From contig NZ_OY781091.1 in the NCBI RefSeq assembly GCF_963676275.1, forward strand, positions 2,768,775 to 2,832,774: a stretch of DNA of 64,000 nucleotides, in the 5' to 3' direction. Both the position numbers and the translations under genes were made by a program. Below the pieces are notes generated by a model. It ran no database searches and was not told the DNA's origin. It saw nothing but the letters and a program-made list of their open reading frames with translations. Origin of the DNA: an uncultured Cohaesibacter sp. GTDB taxonomy: Bacteria; Pseudomonadota; Alphaproteobacteria; Rhizobiales; Cohaesibacteraceae. Below are positions 1,025 to 34,229 of this stretch, one piece after another. How positions within the stretch are numbered: position 1 is the stretch's first letter; each line of letters begins with the position of its first letter.

Positions 1025-1101
<77 letters not shown>

Positions 1102-1144
1102 GCATTTCATGCCAACAAGAAACTTGTCGGCTGGGGTTTCGGGA

Positions 1145-1221
<77 letters not shown>

Positions 1222-1643
1222 ATTACCCGAACCACACTCACCGCCGCTGAAGCGACATGTTCCGTGTGGAGTGGCGCTGAAATACGACGCGAACGAGGGT
1301 AAGTCAAGCACCCAAGAAATTCTTTTTGTGAAAATTTCACAGTCCATTTGCAGAACCGGCTTATTCCTGCCATTTCCCTTGTTGGAAAGCGAAATTTATC
1401 CAAAGGCAACTTGCTCACAGCCATACAGAACCCCTTTTCCCTCAGCAAATTTCTGCTGAAAGATCAGAAACAACCATCCTGTTATCAAGCCCATAAAGCA
1501 GATCCATCGGGCACGCTTTGCAATGCCAATCAGGGGTGCGCGCCCTCCTCCACTGATTTCCCCAGAGAATGGTTTCAACTGTCATTTTTTTGTTGCATGC
1601 CCGGCACTCAGCATCTAAAAGCAGCTCACGCATTAAGGCGCGA
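1222..1643. other. Spacer between tRNA-Asp and tRNA-Val pairs
   Basis: The two tRNA pairs are divergent (Asp minus, Val plus), so this spacer should hold both promoters. No coding region is supported: the open frames lack ribosome binding sites and recognisable protein. Confidence 0.5.
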
Positions 1644-1720
1644 GGGTGTTTAGCTCAGCTGGTTAGAGCATCTCGTTTACACCGAGAGGGTCGGGAGTTC
1701 GAATCTCTCAACACCCACCA
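1644..1720 (+). tRNA. tRNA-Val (anticodon TAC), copy 1
   Basis: The 77-nt gene begins GGGTGTTTAGCTCAG, has anticodon loop TTTACAC (TAC, reading GTA/GTG valine codons), a canonical T-arm GAGTTCGAATCTC and an acceptor stem GGGTGTT/AACACCC, and encodes its CCA. Confidence 0.97.
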
Positions 1721-1831
1721 TTCCCTGACTTTCGCATGTCGAAAGCCTTCGAAATCGTCCAGCAGGAATGTTTTCGACAAGGGAACGCTTCTGAATGCAT
1801 TGATCGCATTTCATTTTAGGAAATGCAGAAT

Positions 1832-1908
1832 GGGTGTTTAGCTCAGCTGGTTAGAGCATCTCGTTTACACCGAGAGGGTCGGGAGTTCGAATCTCTCAAC
1901 ACCCACCA
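1832..1908 (+). tRNA. tRNA-Val (anticodon TAC), copy 2
   Basis: This is identical over 77 nt to the copy at 1644-1720, with encoded CCA. The 111-bp spacer between them is unrelated sequence, so only the tRNA unit is conserved. Confidence 0.97.
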
Positions 1909-25589: not shown

Positions 25590-25976
25590 TCAGGCATTCT
25601 TGCGCATTGCTTCCAATGCAGAAGGGTCAACCGGCGTCAATTCGACGGATTCACCACAGCCACAAGCCGAAGTCTGATTTGGGTTATTGAAAGTTAGCCC
25701 AGAGCGAAACTTGGTCTGTTCATATCCAAGCTCTGTTCCAAGCAGGAACAGCACAGCCTTGGGATCGACATAGACTGCAACGCCCTTGTCCTCGACCAGA
25801 TCATCAGCCGGATTTGCATCCACGACCTTGTCCAGCACATATTCCATACCGGCGCAGCCGCCATTCTTCACCCCGATCCGGATGCCCTTGACGGGCTCAT
25901 CGGACGCTTCCACGATGGACCGGATGAAATCTGCGGCCTCGTCAGAGATCTTCAGAACCTGAAATTTCCCAACCAT
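25590..25976 (-). CDS. sufA: A-type Fe-S carrier SufA (HesB/IscA family)
   Basis: The 128-residue protein has the three conserved cysteines of A-type carriers: one in NGGCAGMEY and two in TSACGCGES near the C-terminus. It accepts clusters from SufBCD and passes them to apoproteins. It is the last gene of the suf operon, 297 bp after sufT, with no recognisable gene in the gap. AAAAGGAA precedes the ATG. Length and motifs are normal. Confidence 0.95.
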   Translation of the reverse strand: MVGKFQVLKISDEAADFIRSIVEASDEPVKGIRIGVKNGGCAGMEYVLDKVVDANPADDLVEDKGVAVYVDPKAVLFLLGTELGYEQTKFRSGLTFNNPNQTSACGCGESVELTPVDPSALEAMRKNA

Positions 25977-26273
25977 ATCCGTTCCTTTTCATAAGTCGTC
26001 ATGTGGCACACAAGCGCCAGATCAGACCGATCATTCAATACCGAAAATCTCGCCCCGAACAGTTAGCCCAGAGCAACCAGCCTAAAGCAACTGGCTCGGC
26101 GCGTCCTGCAATGAAGAGAATGCGACGACAAAAGCCTCTGCCCCTTTGCTGGAAGATGGCGATTGCATCGCGATTATCAAGCCCCTTCCATGGCGCTCCA
26201 TGCCGTCTCAAGGGCAAGATGACCATCTCCCTTGCAGACAAGAGCAATGGCCCAACATTGACATGATCAAGGC

Positions 26274-26666
26274 TCAGTACCAGTTGATCGCAATCTTTGC
26301 CTCTTCGCTCATCCGGTCCGGTGTCCATGGCGGATCAAACACCATATTGACCTTGACGACACCGACACCGGCAACCGAACTCACAGCATTCTCCACCCAT
26401 GACGGCATTTCACCAGCCACCGGACAGCCCGGCGCGGTCAGGGTCATATCGATTTCGACATTGCGATCATCATCAATATCAACCCGATAGATCAGGCCAA
26501 TCTCATAGATATCGGCGGGAATCTCGGGGTCATACACCGTCTTGAGAGCACCGACAATTTCGGAGGTCAGTCGTTCCAGCTCGGCTTCGGGAATAGCCGA
26601 AGTCTGCGCCATATTGGGAACATTTGGCTCAACGAACTCACTATCGCTCACTGTTTCACTCATCAT
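26274..26666 (-). CDS. sufT: SufT-like MIP18/DUF59 Fe-S assembly protein
   Basis: The 130-residue product carries the DUF59 core: TVYDPEIPADIYEIGLIYRVDI, then TAPGCPVAGEMPSWV with its single conserved Cys, and NMVFDPPWTPDRM near the end. SufT proteins help mature Fe-S enzymes. The N-terminal 25 residues are an acidic extension. Two adjacent ATGs (26666, 26663) could start it and neither has a clear Shine-Dalgarno sequence. It lies 60 bp downstream of sufS on the same strand. Confidence 0.92.
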   Translation of the reverse strand: MMSETVSDSEFVEPNVPNMAQTSAIPEAELERLTSEIVGALKTVYDPEIPADIYEIGLIYRVDIDDDRNVEIDMTLTAPGCPVAGEMPSWVENAVSSVAGVGVVKVNMVFDPPWTPDRMSEEAKIAINWY

Positions 26667-26726
26667 TTCGAACCCATATTTCTGTCTTTCACCCTATCAC
26701 AAAGGAACGGCTTGAGACCAATCCAT

Positions 26727-27977
26727 TCAAGAGAAGAAAGACCGAGCCTTCACAAGCGCATCGGCGAGAATATCGATTTCCGCCTTGGTGTTGTAAAGAC
26801 CAAAGGAGGCCCGGCAAGTGGAGGTAACACCAAACCGGGTCAATAGCGGCTGCGCACAATGGGTGCCAGCCCGAACTGCCACGCCCGATCGATCAATCAC
26901 CATCGACACATCGTGCGCATGAATGCCATCCAACGCAAAGGAAACGATCGCACCTTTCCTCTTCGCCTGCCCGATAATGCGCAAGGCATTGATCGAACCA
27001 AGCTTTTCATGGGCATAGGCGCGCAGGGTTTCTTCATGAGCAGCAATCTTCTCGCGCCCGATCTTGTCCATATAGTCAAGCGCCACGCCCAAGCCGATAG
27101 CCTGAACGATTGGCGGCGTGCCAGCCTCGAACTTGTGCGGAGCAACCCCGTAGGTGACGCCATCCAGCGTCACATCCTTGATCATCTCGCCCCCACCCAT
27201 GAAGGGAGGCATGGCATCGAGCAACTCGGCCTTGCCATAAAGCGCCCCGATCCCGGAAGGACCATAGAGCTTGTGGCCAGTGATCGCGAGAAAATCGACA
27301 TCGAGATCCTGCACATCAAGCGGCATATGCACGGCGCTCTGGCTGGCATCCACCAGCACCTTGGCTCCGGCTGCATGAGCCTTGGCGATGACATCCTTGA
27401 CCGGCACAATCGTCCCGATCGCGTTTGACATCTGCGTGATGGCAACGATCTTGGTCTTCTCCGTCAGGAGCTTTTCAAATTCCTCCATCAGGAAATTGCC
27501 ATCATCGTCCACCGGGGCCCATTTGATAACGACGCCACGCTGCTCGCGCAGGAAGTTCCACGGCACGATATTGGAATGGTGCTCCAGAATGGAAATGATG
27601 ACCTCATCCCCCTCCTTGAGCACCATGCCGCCATAGGAATGGGCAACCAGATTGATCGCTTCCGTCGATGAGCGCGTAAAAATCACATTATCGACCGAAG
27701 GGGCATTGAGAAAGCGGCGCACGGTCTCGCGCGCCGCCTCGAAATGGTCGGTTGCCAGATTGGAGAGATAATGCAAGCCCCTGTGCACGTTGGCATATTC
27801 GCTTGAATAGGCCTTCGATATGGCATCGATAACGACCTGCGGTTTCTGCGCAGACGCACCATTATCGAAATAGACCAGCGGCTTGCCATAGACTTCCGAG
27901 GCCAGAATGGGAAAATCGGCGCGAATGGCCTCTACATCATAGATTTCATCGCCTGCCAGTTGGGGAGAATGCATCAT
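26727..27977 (-). CDS. sufS: Cysteine desulfurase SufS (group II)
   Basis: The 416-residue PLP enzyme shows the PLP lysine in AITGHKLYGPSGIGALYG, the histidine of EHHSNIVPW and the active-site Cys in VRAGTHCAQPLL. It liberates sulfur from cysteine for SufBCD. The short loop around the Cys is typical of group II enzymes, which normally need SufE or SufU, and neither is in this cluster. ATG 27977 or 27974 follow AGGA closely; the longer frame to 28007 is not supported. Confidence 0.95.
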   Translation of the reverse strand: MMHSPQLAGDEIYDVEAIRADFPILASEVYGKPLVYFDNGASAQKPQVVIDAISKAYSSEYANVHRGLHYLSNLATDHFEAARETVRRFLNAPSVDNVIFTRSSTEAINLVAHSYGGMVLKEGDEVIISILEHHSNIVPWNFLREQRGVVIKWAPVDDDGNFLMEEFEKLLTEKTKIVAITQMSNAIGTIVPVKDVIAKAHAAGAKVLVDASQSAVHMPLDVQDLDVDFLAITGHKLYGPSGIGALYGKAELLDAMPPFMGGGEMIKDVTLDGVTYGVAPHKFEAGTPPIVQAIGLGVALDYMDKIGREKIAAHEETLRAYAHEKLGSINALRIIGQAKRKGAIVSFALDGIHAHDVSMVIDRSGVAVRAGTHCAQPLLTRFGVTSTCRASFGLYNTKAEIDILADALVKARSFFS

Positions 27978-28034
27978 GGTCCTAAATCCAGTCTGGGCAC
28001 CCCGCAAAGGGTGCCCGTCAATTCAAATCACATA

Positions 28035-29345
28035 TCACTCGGAAAGACCAAGACGGTCCAGAATATAGCTTTCCAGAGCTTCTACAAACTGCTCGTTTGA
28101 AACATTTTCAATCGCTTCAGCCAGAAAGGCCATGACCAGCATTTTCTTGGCCACATCCTTGGAAATGCCGCGCGCCCTCAAATAGAACAGCAGATCCTCG
28201 TCCAGATCACCACAGGTCGCGCCATGGCCGCAGACGACGTCATCGGCATAGATTTCAAGCTCTGGCTTGTTGTTGAAGGAGGCATCCTCAGACAACAGCA
28301 GCGCCTGACTCATCATCTTTGCGTCTGTCTTCTGGGCATATTGGCGCACAATGATCTGGCCCTGAAACACAGCCTCGGCCTTGTCATCAAGCACCGTGCG
28401 ATATTGTTCCTTGGAATTGCAGTGAGGCACCGCATGATCCATTTTCAGCGTGATGTCGCTATGGCGATTGCCATCGACCAGCGAGGCACCGAACAGATCT
28501 GCATCGCTATATTCACCCAGCATCGCCACAAAGGACTGGCTGCGCACGAACTGGCCGCTTGCAGACAGGGTGAAATGTTCAAAATGCACCTGCCCGCCCA
28601 CTTTCGCGGTGGTGGAGCCAAGATGAATGGCATTATCGCCCTCATTGATGATGCGCAGCACATTGAGCTTGGCTTCATCACCGATACGATAATCAATCGC
28701 GCTATTGAGCTGATAGGAAGCCTCATCGCCGACAAAGGTCTCGATGATGCCAACCTTGGCGCCCTTGCCGATCACCACCCGGTTGCGCAGGGTGGCAAGT
28801 CCACCGCCCAGCATCACATGGCGAATTTCAATCGGCTTGCTGATCTCGGCCCCTTCGGCGATCTCGACAATGACACCATCCTGAAGAAGCGCCGTGTTGA
28901 GAGACAGGGCAATGTCACCCTTGGCGATTTCCGGATCATCAAGCACGAAGTCGCCAGCCTGCAGCGCATCGGCTACCGAGCGCACGGAAATGGCATCGCC
29001 CAGATCGGCAAGATCGGACAATTCGGCAGAGAAGCAGCCATTGACCAATACCAGCTGATTTTTCTCGATTGATCTGAGAATGCCGGAACCGGACAGATGC
29101 CCTCTGGCCGTATCGGCAGCCACCGGTTCGGCAAGCGCCAGATCGGCAGGCATGGCCCGCTTGAGATCGGAATATTTCCATTCCTCAACCCGACGCGTCG
29201 GCAACCCGTTTTCTTCAAAGTCAGATACGGCAGCCGAACGCAAGGAGGAGAAATCCGCATTGCCCGGCAGGCCTGCCTGTGCGGCTTTCAGCAGCTCTTG
29301 CAGAGCCTGATCCGCAGCCGTTTTGATTATAGGCGTAGTCATCAA
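28035..29345 (-). CDS. sufD: Fe-S cluster scaffold subunit SufD
   Basis: The 436-residue protein is the SufB paralog of the SufBC2D scaffold. It has the beta-helix core and the C-terminal region VCGHGATCGDLDEDLLFYLRARGI with the conserved His used in cluster assembly. GGGAGG lies 7 nt upstream of the first ATG. It begins 11 bp after sufC, indicating tight coupling. Motifs are ordinary. Confidence 0.95.
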   Translation of the reverse strand: MMTTPIIKTAADQALQELLKAAQAGLPGNADFSSLRSAAVSDFEENGLPTRRVEEWKYSDLKRAMPADLALAEPVAADTARGHLSGSGILRSIEKNQLVLVNGCFSAELSDLADLGDAISVRSVADALQAGDFVLDDPEIAKGDIALSLNTALLQDGVIVEIAEGAEISKPIEIRHVMLGGGLATLRNRVVIGKGAKVGIIETFVGDEASYQLNSAIDYRIGDEAKLNVLRIINEGDNAIHLGSTTAKVGGQVHFEHFTLSASGQFVRSQSFVAMLGEYSDADLFGASLVDGNRHSDITLKMDHAVPHCNSKEQYRTVLDDKAEAVFQGQIIVRQYAQKTDAKMMSQALLLSEDASFNNKPELEIYADDVVCGHGATCGDLDEDLLFYLRARGISKDVAKKMLVMAFLAEAIENVSNEQFVEALESYILDRLGLSE

Positions 29346-29356
29346 TATCCTCCCGA

Positions 29357-30109
<753 letters not shown>

Positions 30110-30235
30110 TGTTTTGTTTCCTTTGGGGCGTCGCCTCTCCGGCTTCGCCATCCCAGTAATCATAAGTGTCCATTACCCCGTCCAGAGGGGCCAAGCGCAA
30201 GGATAGAGCAACATTTCATGAAACATGAAATGTGC

Positions 30236-31720
30236 CTAGCCAACTGATCCTTCGAGCGAAATATTGATCAGTTTCTGCGCTTCAACTGCGAATTCCATTG
30301 GCAGTTGCTGGATCACATCCTTGACAAATCCGTTGACGATGAGCGCCACAGCTTCCTCTTCGCCGATGCCGCGTGCCTGACAATAGAACATCTGGTCATC
30401 GGAGATTTTCGAGGTCGTTGCTTCATGCTCGAAAATGGCCGAGGCATTCTTGCTCTCCACGTAAGGCACCGTATGCGCACCGCACTGATCACCGATCAGA
30501 AGGCTGTCACACTGGGTGAAGTTACGGGCGCCAGAGGCTTTCTTGTGCGCTGACACGAGCCCGCGATAGGTGTTGTTGGACCGCCCTGCGGAAATGCCCT
30601 TGGAGATGATGCGCGAGGACGTATTCTTGCCCAGATGGATCATCTTGGTGCCACTGTCGATCTGCTGATAGCCATTGGAAATGGCAATCGAGTAGAATTC
30701 GCCGGTGGAATTTTCACCACGCAGAATGCAGCTTGGATATTTCCAGGTAATGGCCGAACCGGTCTCTACCTGTGTCCAGGAAATCTTGGCATTCTTCTCG
30801 CGACAGTCACCGCGCTTGGTAACGAAGTTATAGATGCCGCCCTTGCCTTCGCTGTCGCCCGGATACCAGTTCTGGACCGTCGAATATTTGATCTCGGCAT
30901 CTTCCAGAGCGATCAGTTCCACCACCGCAGCATGCAACTGGTTCTCGTCGCGCTGAGGTGCCGTGCAGCCTTCCAGATAGGAAACATAGGACCCCTTGTC
31001 GGCAATGATCAGCGTGCGCTCGAACTGCCCCGTATTCTGCTCGTTGATACGGAAATAGGTCGAAAGCTCCATCGGACAACGCACCCCTTCAGGCACATAG
31101 ACAAAAGAACCGTCGGTAAAGACCGCGCTGTTCAGCGTCGCATAGAAATTATCCGATACCGGCACCACGGAAGCGAGATATTTCTTCACCAGTTCCGGAT
31201 GCTCACGGATGGCTTCCGAAATGGAGCAGAAAATGACACCGGCCTTTTTCAGCTCTTCCTTGAAGGTGGTCGCAACCGAGACCGAGTCGAACACGGCATC
31301 GACAGCCACCTTGGCATATTGCCGATTCTCTTCGGTGACACCCGCCAGAATTTCCTGTTCCTGCAGCGGAATGCCCAGCTTCTCATAGGTTCTGAGCAGC
31401 TCGGGATCCACCTCTGCAAGGCTTTTGGGGCCTTCAGCGATTTTCGGCGCGGAATAATAATAGATCTCGTTGAATTTCGGCTTGGGATAATCAAGCTTGG
31501 CCCATGTCGGTTCTTCCATGGTCAGCCAGCGCCGATAGGCGTCCAGACGCCATTCAAGCATCCATTCCGGTTCTGATTTCTTGGCAGAAATGAACCGGAT
31601 CACATCCTCGTTCAATCCAAGCGGGGCTTTTTCGGATTCGATATCCGTCACAAAGCCATATTTATACTGGTCAACGTCGATCTGTTTGACTTGATCGACA
31701 GTCTCCTTCACAGCAGCCAT
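30236..31720 (-). CDS. sufB: Fe-S cluster scaffold subunit SufB
   Basis: The 494-residue protein is full length. The C-terminal core has [25 protein letters not shown], with the conserved Cys and the His/Glu region, and [18 protein letters not shown]. It is the cluster-building subunit of SufBC2D. GGAG lies 7 nt before the ATG. It is 126 bp upstream of sufC and 251 bp downstream of the first cysteine desulfurase, a gap that could hold a second promoter. Confidence 0.97.
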
Positions 31721-31971
31721 TTGCTACTCCATCCTAGCGCGGTTTCAAGGACCGCCGGTCATAGGGCTGCTCGCCCAGTTCCCTGCATTATCGTTGATCC
31801 GACACTGGTCTGTCGGCAAGGCAAAAAGGGTCGAGATGCCCGATCGCAGATTTTAACTCATCTCATCTTGCCTTGATGCCACCGGCCTCTGACCAGTGGC
31901 ACATCCGTTTAAAATCAGAGCGCCTCACGATTGCACCATGATTTCAATCCATGATGACTATATAAGCGCGC

Positions 31972-33159
31972 TCACAACGCCTTCTCAATGCCTCTTGAGT
32001 TATTTTTTGAGTTTTTGACGCATATTTGTTCAAGAGCCTCGATAAGTGCATTGATTTCAGGCTCTTTGCTATTCCAGCCAAGGCTCATACGAATGGCTGA
32101 ACCGGCAAGTTTCGACTCATATCCCATCGCCAGAAGCACATGGGATGCCGAAACCTTGCCCGAAGAACAGGCCGAACCCGAGCTGACAGCAACCCCGGAA
32201 AGATCGAGACGAATGAGACTTGTCTCCCCCTTCATTCCCGGAATTGCAAACTGACATGTATTCCCAACCCTTGGCGCATCCTGCCCGAATATCACGACAT
32301 CAGGATCAAGCGCCCGCAATCCTTCTTCAAACCGATCGCGTAACCCAGTCAGCCGGGCAAACCCGTCCGGCCTTTCCAGCTCCTTGGCCACCGACTGACA
32401 GGCCACCCCGAATCCGACGATCCCGGCGACATTCTCGGTTCCGGCCCGAAGCCGGTTTTCTTGCGGACCACCGGTGATCAGAGGCTCCGGTTCTGTTCCT
32501 TCATGCGCCATTACAAGCGCACCAACGCCCTGCGGGCCTCCAAGCTTGTGCGCCGAGAGCGAGAGGCTCGTACAGCCCAGAGCCGCCATATCGAGCGGAA
32601 TACGGCCCGCAGCCTGCACCGCATCGAGATGGAAATAGGCGTCAAATTCCCCGGCAAGTGCCGCAATCTCCTCAATCGGCTGTATAACGCCCGTTTCGCT
32701 GTTGACCGCCATAACGGCAACCATCGGACGCCCCTTCAGACGGTCATGCGCCTCAAGCTTTACCCGCAACGCCGACAGGTCGATCTGCCCATTTCGCAAA
32801 ACCGGAATCTCGCACCTTGCCTCGACGCCAAAACGCCCGCCAGACAGCACCGAGGGATGCTCAATCGCACTCATATAGAGGCGGGAGGCCGGATCGGGCT
32901 GATATTCAACCTTCATATTCGGTGTCAGCGCCAGCATATTGGCTTCGCTCGCCCCGGAGGTGAAAATCACCTGCCGCACCGCGCCACCGACCAACTCGGC
33001 CACCTTCCCCCTTGCCCGCTCAACCAGAGCCCACGCATCACGACCTTCCTTGTGTACGGAGGAGGCATTTCCAACCCCGTCCCACACATCAAGGATGGCG
33101 GCCTTCACCTCTGGGCGTAATGGCGAAGTCGCATTGTGATCTAGATAGGCGCGTTGCAT
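31972..33159 (-). CDS. Cysteine desulfurase, IscS/NifS-type (group I)
   Basis: The 395-residue PLP enzyme heads the operon. It starts YLDHNATSPLRPEV, has the PLP Lys in SLSAHKLGGPQGVGALV and the mobile Cys loop VAVSSGSACSSGKVSASHVL of group I desulfurases. Having a group I enzyme first and a group II SufS later is a common alphaproteobacterial layout. CGGGAA precedes the ATG. A roughly 210-nt leader from the predicted promoter precedes it. No Rrf2-type regulator gene lies next to it, unlike in many relatives. Confidence 0.93.
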   Translation of the reverse strand: MQRAYLDHNATSPLRPEVKAAILDVWDGVGNASSVHKEGRDAWALVERARGKVAELVGGAVRQVIFTSGASEANMLALTPNMKVEYQPDPASRLYMSAIEHPSVLSGGRFGVEARCEIPVLRNGQIDLSALRVKLEAHDRLKGRPMVAVMAVNSETGVIQPIEEIAALAGEFDAYFHLDAVQAAGRIPLDMAALGCTSLSLSAHKLGGPQGVGALVMAHEGTEPEPLITGGPQENRLRAGTENVAGIVGFGVACQSVAKELERPDGFARLTGLRDRFEEGLRALDPDVVIFGQDAPRVGNTCQFAIPGMKGETSLIRLDLSGVAVSSGSACSSGKVSASHVLLAMGYESKLAGSAIRMSLGWNSKEPEINALIEALEQICVKNSKNNSRGIEKAL

Positions 33160-33295
33160 GTCAATTTCCCGTATTCAACCCTCCGGAACCTTTCCGGAGG
33201 CCTTTGCCCGATCATTTACCATGACTGGGCGAAAATTTGAGCCAATCGGGCAAGTTATTTCGCCTATACCCTGCAAAAAGACTTGAAATTCGACC

Positions 33296-33329
33296 ATCCA
33301 TTTGTGCTAAGAAGGGCAATCAAATGGAT
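33296..33329 (-). repeat. Inverted repeat in the suf leader
   Basis: ATCCATTTG (33296-33304) and CAAATGGAT (33321-33329) are perfect 9-bp arms around a 16-nt loop. In the suf mRNA they would form a hairpin in the 5' leader. Confidence 0.65.
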
Positions 33330-33355
33330 CGCACCGACCTGAGCGCTGACAATAG

Positions 33356-33372
33356 TTTTGAATCATTCTAAA
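33356..33372. promoter_or_regulatory. Irr/ICE-like box at the suf start site
   Basis: TTTTGAATCATTCTAAA matches the ICE consensus TTTAGAANNNTTCTAAA, as I recall it, at 13 of 14 fixed positions. It covers the predicted transcription start of the suf operon (about 33370, minus strand). Irr is the haem/iron-responsive Fur-family regulator of Rhizobiales and is known to act on suf operons there. Confidence 0.65.
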
Positions 33373-33376
33373 AAGA

Positions 33377-33405
33377 GCAATATAAAACTTGTGCCAATTA
33401 GTCAA
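33377..33405 (-). promoter_or_regulatory. Sigma-70-type promoter of the isc/suf operon
   Basis: On the minus strand, -35 TTGACT (33405-33400) and -10 TATTGC (33382-33377) are 17 bp apart. The predicted start is near 33370, giving a leader of about 210 nt before the desulfurase ATG. Confidence 0.65.
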
Positions 33406-33412
33406 GTTTTAT
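33382..33412. promoter_or_regulatory. Palindromic operator over the suf promoter (IscR/Rrf2-like)
   Basis: Perfect arms ATAAAACTTG and CAAGTTTTAT flank an 11-bp centre and span -10 to -35. On the minus strand the left half CTTGACTAATT matches the enteric IscR type-1 half-site fully from position 3 to 14; the right half agrees partly. About 19 of 25 positions fit the consensus I recall. Confidence 0.6.
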
Positions 33413-33416
33413 AGCC

Positions 33417-33524: not shown

Positions 33525-34229
33525 ATGCCAGAGGTGATCTTTAATGGCCCTGCCGGGCGTCTGGAAGGGCGGCTGCACCCTTCCAAAAACCGCAAGGCTC
33601 CAATCGCACTGATTCTCCATCCGCATCCACGCTTCGGCGGCACCATGAATAACGAGATCATCTATCATCTCTATTACATGTTCGCCCGTCGCGGCTTTAC
33701 GGTTCTGCGTTTCAACTTCCGTGGTGTCGGTCGCTCTCAGGGCACTTTCGACCATGGCGTTGGCGAATTGTCCGATGCGGCGGCGGCTCTGGACTGGGTC
33801 CAGACCTTCCATTCCGAAGCTCCCGGCGTCTGGATTGCCGGCTTCTCCTTCGGAGCCTGGATCGGCATGCAGCTCCTGATGCGCAGACCAGAGGTGGAAG
33901 GCTTCATCTCCATCGCCCCTCCGGCCAACCTTTACGACTTCTCCTTCCTTGCTCCCTGCCCGTCATCCGGGCTCATCACCCACGGTGGCATGGACAAGGT
34001 GGTTCCGCACAAGGATGTTCAGGCACTCGTTGACAAGCTCAAGACGCAGAAGGGCATTGTCATCGATCAGGAAATCATTCCGGGAGCAAACCACTTCTTC
34101 AAGGAAGAAACCGACCAGCTGATCAATGTTTGCGCCAACTATCTGGACAAACGCATCGGCTTTGATCCCTCTCAGTTGGAAGACATCAAGGAGTCGGGCG
34201 ACAAGTCTGATTCAGCCATCCAGCTGTAG
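33525..34229 (+). CDS. Alpha/beta hydrolase (suf-adjacent conserved family)
   Basis: The 234-residue enzyme has the oxyanion region HPHPRFGGTMNN, the nucleophile elbow GFSFGAWIG with its Ser, the acid region HGGMDKVVP and the catalytic His in GANHFFKEE. Proteins of this kind sit beside cysteine desulfurase or suf genes in many alphaproteobacteria, but their substrate is unknown. It is divergent from the suf operon and shares its control region. The C-terminus has an acidic, Ser-rich tail. The start is supported by family fit; the purine-rich AGAGGA is somewhat far. Confidence 0.9.
   Translation: MPEVIFNGPAGRLEGRLHPSKNRKAPIALILHPHPRFGGTMNNEIIYHLYYMFARRGFTVLRFNFRGVGRSQGTFDHGVGELSDAAAALDWVQTFHSEAPGVWIAGFSFGAWIGMQLLMRRPEVEGFISIAPPANLYDFSFLAPCPSSGLITHGGMDKVVPHKDVQALVDKLKTQKGIVIDQEIIPGANHFFKEETDQLINVCANYLDKRIGFDPSQLEDIKESGDKSDSAIQL

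What the first reader, a model, noticed from the sequence alone, without database searches (positions are those of the whole stretch)
33356..33412. Isc/suf operon promoter overlapped by an IscR-like palindrome and an Irr ICE-like box
Seen in sequence: a minus-strand promoter (TTGACT-N17-TATTGC) is covered by perfect 10-bp arms ATAAAACTTG/CAAGTTTTAT, and a 17-bp site one base off the ICE consensus I recall lies on the predicted start. Known: Rrf2 regulators (IscR, RirA) and Irr control suf operons in alphaproteobacteria. Inferred: two signals, Fe-S status and haem/iron, converge here on one promoter, with the Rrf2-like factor occupying -35/-10 and Irr the start site. The arrangement could be a useful model of dual iron control.
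Basis: partly seen in the sequence, partly recalled or inferred. Interest (0 to 1): 0.75.

Follow-up and report, generated by a model that had tools for sequence, protein, structure and literature searches.

The report
Iron-controlled suf promoter with facing promoter
Upstream of the iron-sulfur-cluster assembly genes of a Cohaesibacter bacterium lies a conserved promoter carrying two predicted iron-regulator sites, a known kind of arrangement, here with an unusual version of one site and a second promoter that appears to fire towards it.

Summary
Perfect 11-bp arms (33381-33413) cover the -35 and spacer of a minus-strand promoter of iscS-sufBCDS-sufT-sufA, and an ICE-like box one base off the recalled palindrome (33356-33372) lies on the predicted start. 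All 18 Cohaesibacter genomes examined keep both boxes, start to start 35-36 bp.

The interpretation needs correction. No Rrf2 protein of this genome is IscR; two are RirA-like, and Irr is present. The operator is neither a canonical IscR box nor a strict RirA IRO box (TGA-N9-TCA): 18 of 18 genomes have ACA or GCA in place of TCA. Exact AACTTG-N11-CAAGTT occurs mainly at suf in this genus (17 of 21 sites). IscR-box plus Irr-box geometry at an isc-suf promoter is already published for Rhodobacter sphaeroides.

It is kept in 18 of 18 Cohaesibacter and found behind an ICE box in 30 more of 397 genomes of the order, against 0 of 397 in the opposite orientation. It resembles the published promoter P5 of R. 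sphaeroides. This is a new variant of a known kind.

The parts
33381..33413 (-). Rrf2-type (probably RirA) operator: perfect 11-bp arms, core AACTTG-N11-CAAGTT; holds the -35 TTGACT (33405-33400) and reaches into the -10
   Evidence: conserved in 18 of 18 genus loci, one with a mismatch; 0 of 40 non-genus loci at up to one mismatch
33377..33405 (-). predicted suf promoter TTGACT-N17-TATTGC, start expected near 33370
   Evidence: Sequence; TTGACT and the TA of the -10 kept in 18 of 18; start not mapped
33356..33372 (-). ICE-like Irr box TTTAGAATGATTCAAAA on the predicted start
   Evidence: 13 of 13 fixed bases invariant in 18 loci; within one mismatch in 22 of 40 non-genus loci
33283..33311 (+). 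predicted facing promoter of the hydrolase, TTGAAA-N17-GCTAAG, start expected near 33318
   Evidence: 18 of 18 genus loci; behind ICE in 48 of 397 genomes against 0 of 397 in the opposite orientation
25590..33159 (-). iscS (nifS-like), sufB, sufC, sufD, sufS, sufT-like, sufA
33525..34229 (+). divergent alpha/beta hydrolase

Best explanation
This is the iron-regulated promoter region shared by the suf operon and a divergent hydrolase. Shown by sequence and conservation: an operator on -35 and spacer, an ICE box on the predicted start, and a predicted facing hydrolase promoter 59-87 bp downstream of the predicted suf start, so that the two transcripts would overlap by about 50 bp. Inferred mechanism: cluster-loaded RirA sits on -35/-10 and represses suf when Fe-S supply is good; haem-free Irr sits on the start and represses suf when iron is too scarce to build clusters. 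The operon is fully on when RirA has lost its cluster but Irr is inactive, as under oxidative damage with iron present. The facing promoter fires through the ICE box and operator and adds a cis effect (supercoiling or interference) on suf, as P5 does in Rhodobacter; Irr bound between the two starts would also obstruct the hydrolase transcript.
For: Both boxes conserved in 18 of 18 genus loci at fixed distance. Irr over both Irr cut-offs, RirA-like L003 and L002, no IscR. L003 86-95% identical in the 14 other genus genomes searched. Sites of IRO form near iron-linked genes in the same genome: 4 of 7 looked at. A second exact AACTTG-N11-CAAGTT with the same asymmetric right half lies upstream of feoB in G015. 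Facing element: 18 of 18 in the genus, 48 of 397 in the order, orientation control 0 of 397. RirA is reported to regulate Fe-S biogenesis in R. leguminosarum (PMC7762939, passages).
Against: The right half is ACA or GCA, not TCA, in 18 of 18, so the strict IRO box is not met. Sister genus G019 has a 65% RirA relative but no palindrome. Irr did not bind the R. sphaeroides P2 box in vitro, and loss of Irr lowered P2 activity (PMC6956336 section 18). In S. fredii a passage, cut in the listing, reports slightly lower sufB in a rirA mutant (PMC6386902). The facing -10 is far from TATAAT. No start site or binding was measured here.
Confidence: 0.6

Rival explanations
1. The palindrome is read by a different or specialised regulator (the second RirA-like protein L002, the CymR/IscR-like Rrf2 L001, or an unrelated factor), making AACTTG-N11-CAAGTT a suf operator outside the RirA regulon.
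For: 17 of 21 exact sites in 18 genomes are at suf. The right half AACTTG[TC] (17 of 18; L027 differs) lacks the A of an IRO half. The palindrome is absent from G019, which has a RirA relative.
Against: The left half and the register are those of Rrf2 Fe-S boxes. One of the four other exact sites is upstream of feoB. L002 has a 59% relative in another family (G031), so it is not private to the genus.
Confidence: 0.27
2. The block at 33270-33335 is not a facing promoter but a leader RNA element or another protein-binding site of the suf leader.
For: Extra conserved bases flank the two hexamers (GATCCATTTG; TCTTTT); the -10 is far from TATAAT.
Against: No consensus RNA fold over 18 sequences (energy 0.0) and no Rfam match there. 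Two conserved hexamers with a 17-bp variable spacer, orientation-specific across the order (48 of 397 against 0 of 397), beside the hydrolase in 29 of 30 loci checked. R. sphaeroides has a promoter of this orientation.
Confidence: 0.12
3. The ICE-like box is a relic, or a site of some other factor, and Irr does not act on suf here.
For: Irr did not bind the comparable P2 box of R. sphaeroides (PMC6956336).
Against: 13 of 13 fixed bases invariant in 18 loci, within one mismatch in 22 of 40 other loci, and Irr present.
Confidence: 0.12

Closest known systems
Rhodobacter sphaeroides isc-suf promoter P2 with facing promoter P5 (PMC6956336)
   Same: Rrf2-type box over -35/spacer and Irr box next to the start of an isc-suf operon; a promoter downstream, on the other strand, drives a hydrolase gene
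   Different: There iscR is the first gene and IscR reads the box; here there is no iscR, the right half of the operator is altered, and the ICE box lies at about -2 to +15 rather than -13 to +1
RirA IRO box (TGA-N9-TCA; PMC6386902)
   Same: Same spacing of the halves, left half TTGA, RirA-like proteins in the genome
   Different: Right half is ACA or GCA in 18 of 18 genus loci; binding untested
IscR box of isc-suf operons in other families of the order
   Same: Left half CTTGACT doubling as the -35, ICE box 35-48 bp behind
   Different: AGTC-type right half and an adjacent iscR-like gene there; neither here
Irr ICE box
   Same: TTTAGAA-N3-TTC-N-AAA, Irr encoded, Fe-S assembly operon
   Different: One base off the perfect palindrome; binding untested

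Membership tests
RirA IRO box | TGA-N9-TCA (consensus from PMC6386902) | tested here: not met
   TGA-N9-ACA or GCA in 18 of 18 genus loci
RirA IRO box | a RirA protein in the genome | tested here: inconclusive
   L003 181.1 and L002 157.6 bits, best model RirA, cut-off 193
RirA IRO box | binding by cluster-loaded RirA | not testable with these tools
   needs purified protein
IscR type 1 box | two inverted YYGACT halves (consensus recalled) | tested here: not met
   left half only; the right half reads CTTG[TC] in 17 of 18, CCTGC in L027
IscR type 1 box | an IscR protein in the genome | tested here: not met
   best IscR score 75.5 against 207.55
Irr ICE box | TTTAGAA-N3-TTCTAAA or one base off (consensus recalled) | tested here: met
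   one base off here; 13 fixed bases invariant in 18 loci
Irr ICE box | an Irr protein in the genome | tested here: met
   L010, 213.1 over 150 and 202.8 over 170 bits
Irr ICE box | binding by Irr | not testable with these tools
   needs purified protein
R. sphaeroides P2/P5-type facing pair | promoter on the opposite strand downstream of the suf start, pointing to the hydrolase | tested here: met
   by pattern only: 18 of 18 genus loci; 48 of 397 genomes
R. sphaeroides P2/P5-type facing pair | facing promoter stimulates the sense promoter in cis | not testable with these tools
   needs reporter fusions

The most novel reading that the evidence does not exclude
After losing IscR, Cohaesibacter rebuilt its suf operator into a half-and-half site (one Rrf2 half-site doubling as the -35, one private CTTG[TC] half) read by a specialised RirA-like protein. 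The Irr box lies between the two starts of a pair of facing promoters that is widespread in the order, so that Irr controls suf, the hydrolase and their interference from one site.
Probability: 0.25. Interest if true: 0.6.

Novelty: new variant of a known kind. Interest (0 to 1): 0.4.

Why it matters
It shows how an Fe-S assembly promoter can keep its two-signal layout while its Rrf2 regulator is exchanged and the operator rewritten. It also extends a feature known to me from one species (the R. sphaeroides facing promoter) to loci in about ten family labels of the order, which makes the unsolved cis effect of facing promoters testable in natural variants. The dual iron control itself is expected from published work.

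Tried and rejected
A conserved RNA structure in the suf leader: no consensus fold, no Rfam match there. An upstream ORF in the leader: in L016 the fourth codon after the ATG matching window 33301 is a stop (sequence), so it was dropped. The weak second operator copy at 33232-33264 (76% over 33 bp): not kept in the relatives.

L002 as genus-specific reader: weakened by a relative in G031 (a tree with several long branches). One search used a spacing one base too short and missed the window's own site; one search repeated it correctly. The pattern was written after I had looked at those sequences, so I give more weight. Of the 397 genomes there, 61 had been handled before and 336 had not; 26 of those 336 match. 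Of the 48 matches, 30 loci were returned and checked: 29 hold the hydrolase and IscS, L191 holds neither; 18 were not checked. In one search, 7 of 23 non-genus loci without an upstream Rrf2 ORF were left out for lack of an ICE within two mismatches, and one of the 7 positives of 16 (L065) looks like a chance match to me.

Of 61 genomes, 58 upstream regions were used; G035, G037 and G051 (partial matches) were left out. Of the 57 distinct places listed, 8 have IRO form; 7 were looked at, of which 4 have an iron-linked neighbour, L135 an ABC transporter, and L219 and L220 none that I recognised, in or next to other reading frames; the eighth was not looked at. One search was a mis-framed reference that returned SufB and was not used.

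Full report
WHAT IS THERE. The window lies in a 5.03-Mb genome of the genus Cohaesibacter. The genus is inferred from the only named relative found, C. marisflavi, whose IscS is 83% identical. On the minus strand runs iscS(nifS-like)-sufB-sufC-sufD-sufS-sufT-like-sufA (33159 down to 25590), and on the plus strand a divergent alpha/beta hydrolase starts at 33525. The 365-bp gap between them is the subject.

THE TWO BOXES. The palindrome TATAAAACTTG-N11-CAAGTTTTATA (33381-33413) and the ICE-like TTTAGAATGATTCAAAA (33356-33372, minus) are as described. The palindrome's left half holds the -35 (TTGACT), and the ICE box would span about -2 to +15 of the predicted start (near 33370, not mapped). In 18 of 18 Cohaesibacter loci (this one and 17 relatives) AACTTGACT and the 13 fixed ICE bases are invariant. 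CAAGTT has one exception (CAGGTT in L027), and the distance between box starts is 35-36 bp. The background is 22 of 315 invariant columns. Outside the core the long arms decay, for example TTTAACTTG...CAAGTTCAC in L026.

WHO READS THEM. The genome has three Fur-family proteins, one of them Irr (L010) over both Irr cut-offs; the other two score best on Fur and Zur models, below cut-off. Of four Rrf2 proteins over the Pfam cut-off, L003 and L002 fit RirA best (181.1 and 157.6 bits, cut-off 193). L004 also scores highest on RirA, at 97.6. L001 scores highest on the Rrf2 superfamily model, with CymR its best equivalog. None fits IscR. L003 orthologues are 86-95% identical in the 14 other genus genomes searched (G005, G009 and G015 were not searched).

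Of the 57 distinct places listed (up to three mismatches), 8 have the IRO form TGA-N9-TCA. I looked at 7. Four lie by iron-linked genes: a TonB receptor (L109), an enterochelin-esterase-like protein (L119), a periplasmic binding protein PF01497 (L136) and fumC (L132; its iron link is recalled). One is at an ABC transporter read by eye (L135), and two, L219 and L220, are in or next to other reading frames with no iron gene recognised.

The suf site differs from these: the right half is ACA or GCA where an IRO box (TGA-N9-TCA; PMC6386902, passages) has TCA, in 18 of 18. Exact AACTTG-N11-CAAGTT occurs 21 times in 18 genomes, 17 of them at suf; the control pattern read backwards occurs 9 times. 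Of the 4 others, one is upstream of feoB in G015 with the same asymmetric form, one in this genome has no recognised iron gene nearby (L137), and two in G016 are in or next to other reading frames. I therefore favour RirA with an altered half-site and keep a different or dedicated reader as a rival.

HISTORY OF THE OPERATOR. Among 40 non-genus loci, 17 have an Rrf2 ORF upstream of iscS. Three of these proteins were scanned, and IscR is their best model, at 171-191 bits, under its cut-off of 207.55. By eye, 10 of these 17 loci carry a CTTGACT...TC(A/G)G-type box 35-48 bp before an ICE within two mismatches. Of the 23 loci without that ORF, 16 have ICE within two mismatches, each with a TTGAC some 20-50 bp before it, mostly without a palindrome (L035 has a canonical one). 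The genus-type operator is found in none of the 40 at up to one mismatch, including the sister genera G018 and G019. ICE within one mismatch: 22 of 40; within two: 27 of 40. Inferred: loss of iscR, then a rewritten right half in the Cohaesibacter line.

A THIRD ELEMENT. A block at about 33270-33335 is also strongly conserved. It has no consensus RNA structure. On the plus strand it reads TTGAAA-N17-GCTAAG (GCTATG or GTTAAG in relatives), at constant spacing in 18 of 18 (TTGTAA in L028 and L029). It points at the suf promoter and towards the hydrolase. In 16 non-genus loci without an upstream Rrf2 ORF that have ICE, 7 carry CTTG-N20-GNTA in that orientation and 0 in the other, with 0.05 expected from shuffles; this pattern was set after seeing the sequences. 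A wider test, ICE-N25-55 followed by the antisense element, matched 48 of 397 genomes of the order: 18 Cohaesibacter and 30 others, 26 of them among 336 genomes not handled before. The opposite orientation matched 0 of 397, and no reversed-pattern control hit was listed. So 349 of 397 do not match this exact form. Of 30 returned loci, 29 have the hydrolase and IscS beside it.

MECHANISM. From passages of PMC7762939 and PMC6748827: cluster-loaded RirA binds under good iron supply and loses its cluster under low iron or oxygen, while haem-free Irr binds ICE. Put together, suf would be repressed by RirA at high Fe-S status and by Irr in deep iron shortage, and be most active when clusters are damaged but iron is present. 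This is inference.

Results that speak against it: Irr did not bind the P2 box of R. [quoted passage not shown] a passage of PMC6386902 speaks of slight decreases of sufB and irr in an S. fredii rirA mutant, while the same paper says that rirA loss raises Fe-S biosynthesis genes in other rhizobia. For the facing promoter: R. sphaeroides P5 drives the hydrolase gene RSP_0444; a -35 mutation that almost abolishes P5 removes its stimulation of P2, and antisense RNA supplied from a second plasmid has no effect (PMC6956336 sections 14 and 16). A similar cis effect is the natural expectation here.

NOVELTY. The dual Rrf2/Irr layout and the facing promoter are in print for Rhodobacter (sections 3, 14, 16, 18 and 20 of PMC6956336 read). 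That paper says, citing a 2006 bioinformatic study, that Rhizobiales lack IscR homologues; the IscR-like genes in relatives here qualify that. Six literature searches listed no paper on suf control in Cohaesibacter or on order-wide conservation of the facing promoter. The library lacks most subscription journals and the 2006 study itself, so this is weak evidence of absence. I rate it a new variant of a known kind.

Noticed in passing
window 1025-1908: Two tRNA-Asp (gtc) genes on the minus strand and two tRNA-Val (tac) genes on the plus strand, each pair in tandem, the pairs divergent.
   Followed up: no
window 33232-33264: A 76% direct copy of the suf operator region (33384-33416) lies in the predicted suf leader; it is not kept in the relatives.
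   Followed up: partly
L107, L104, L103, L100 (site at 1501 in each): Other ICE-like sites of the genome lie by an AhpC-type peroxiredoxin (L107), an Fe/Mn superoxide dismutase (L104) and a solute-binding protein (L103), each with one mismatch; an exact one (L100) lies near a LysR-like reading frame.
   Followed up: no
L003 and L011 (G000:C1:4437595-4438812): The RirA-like gene L003 and a Zur-like Fur-family gene L011 lie next to each other on the same strand.
   Followed up: no
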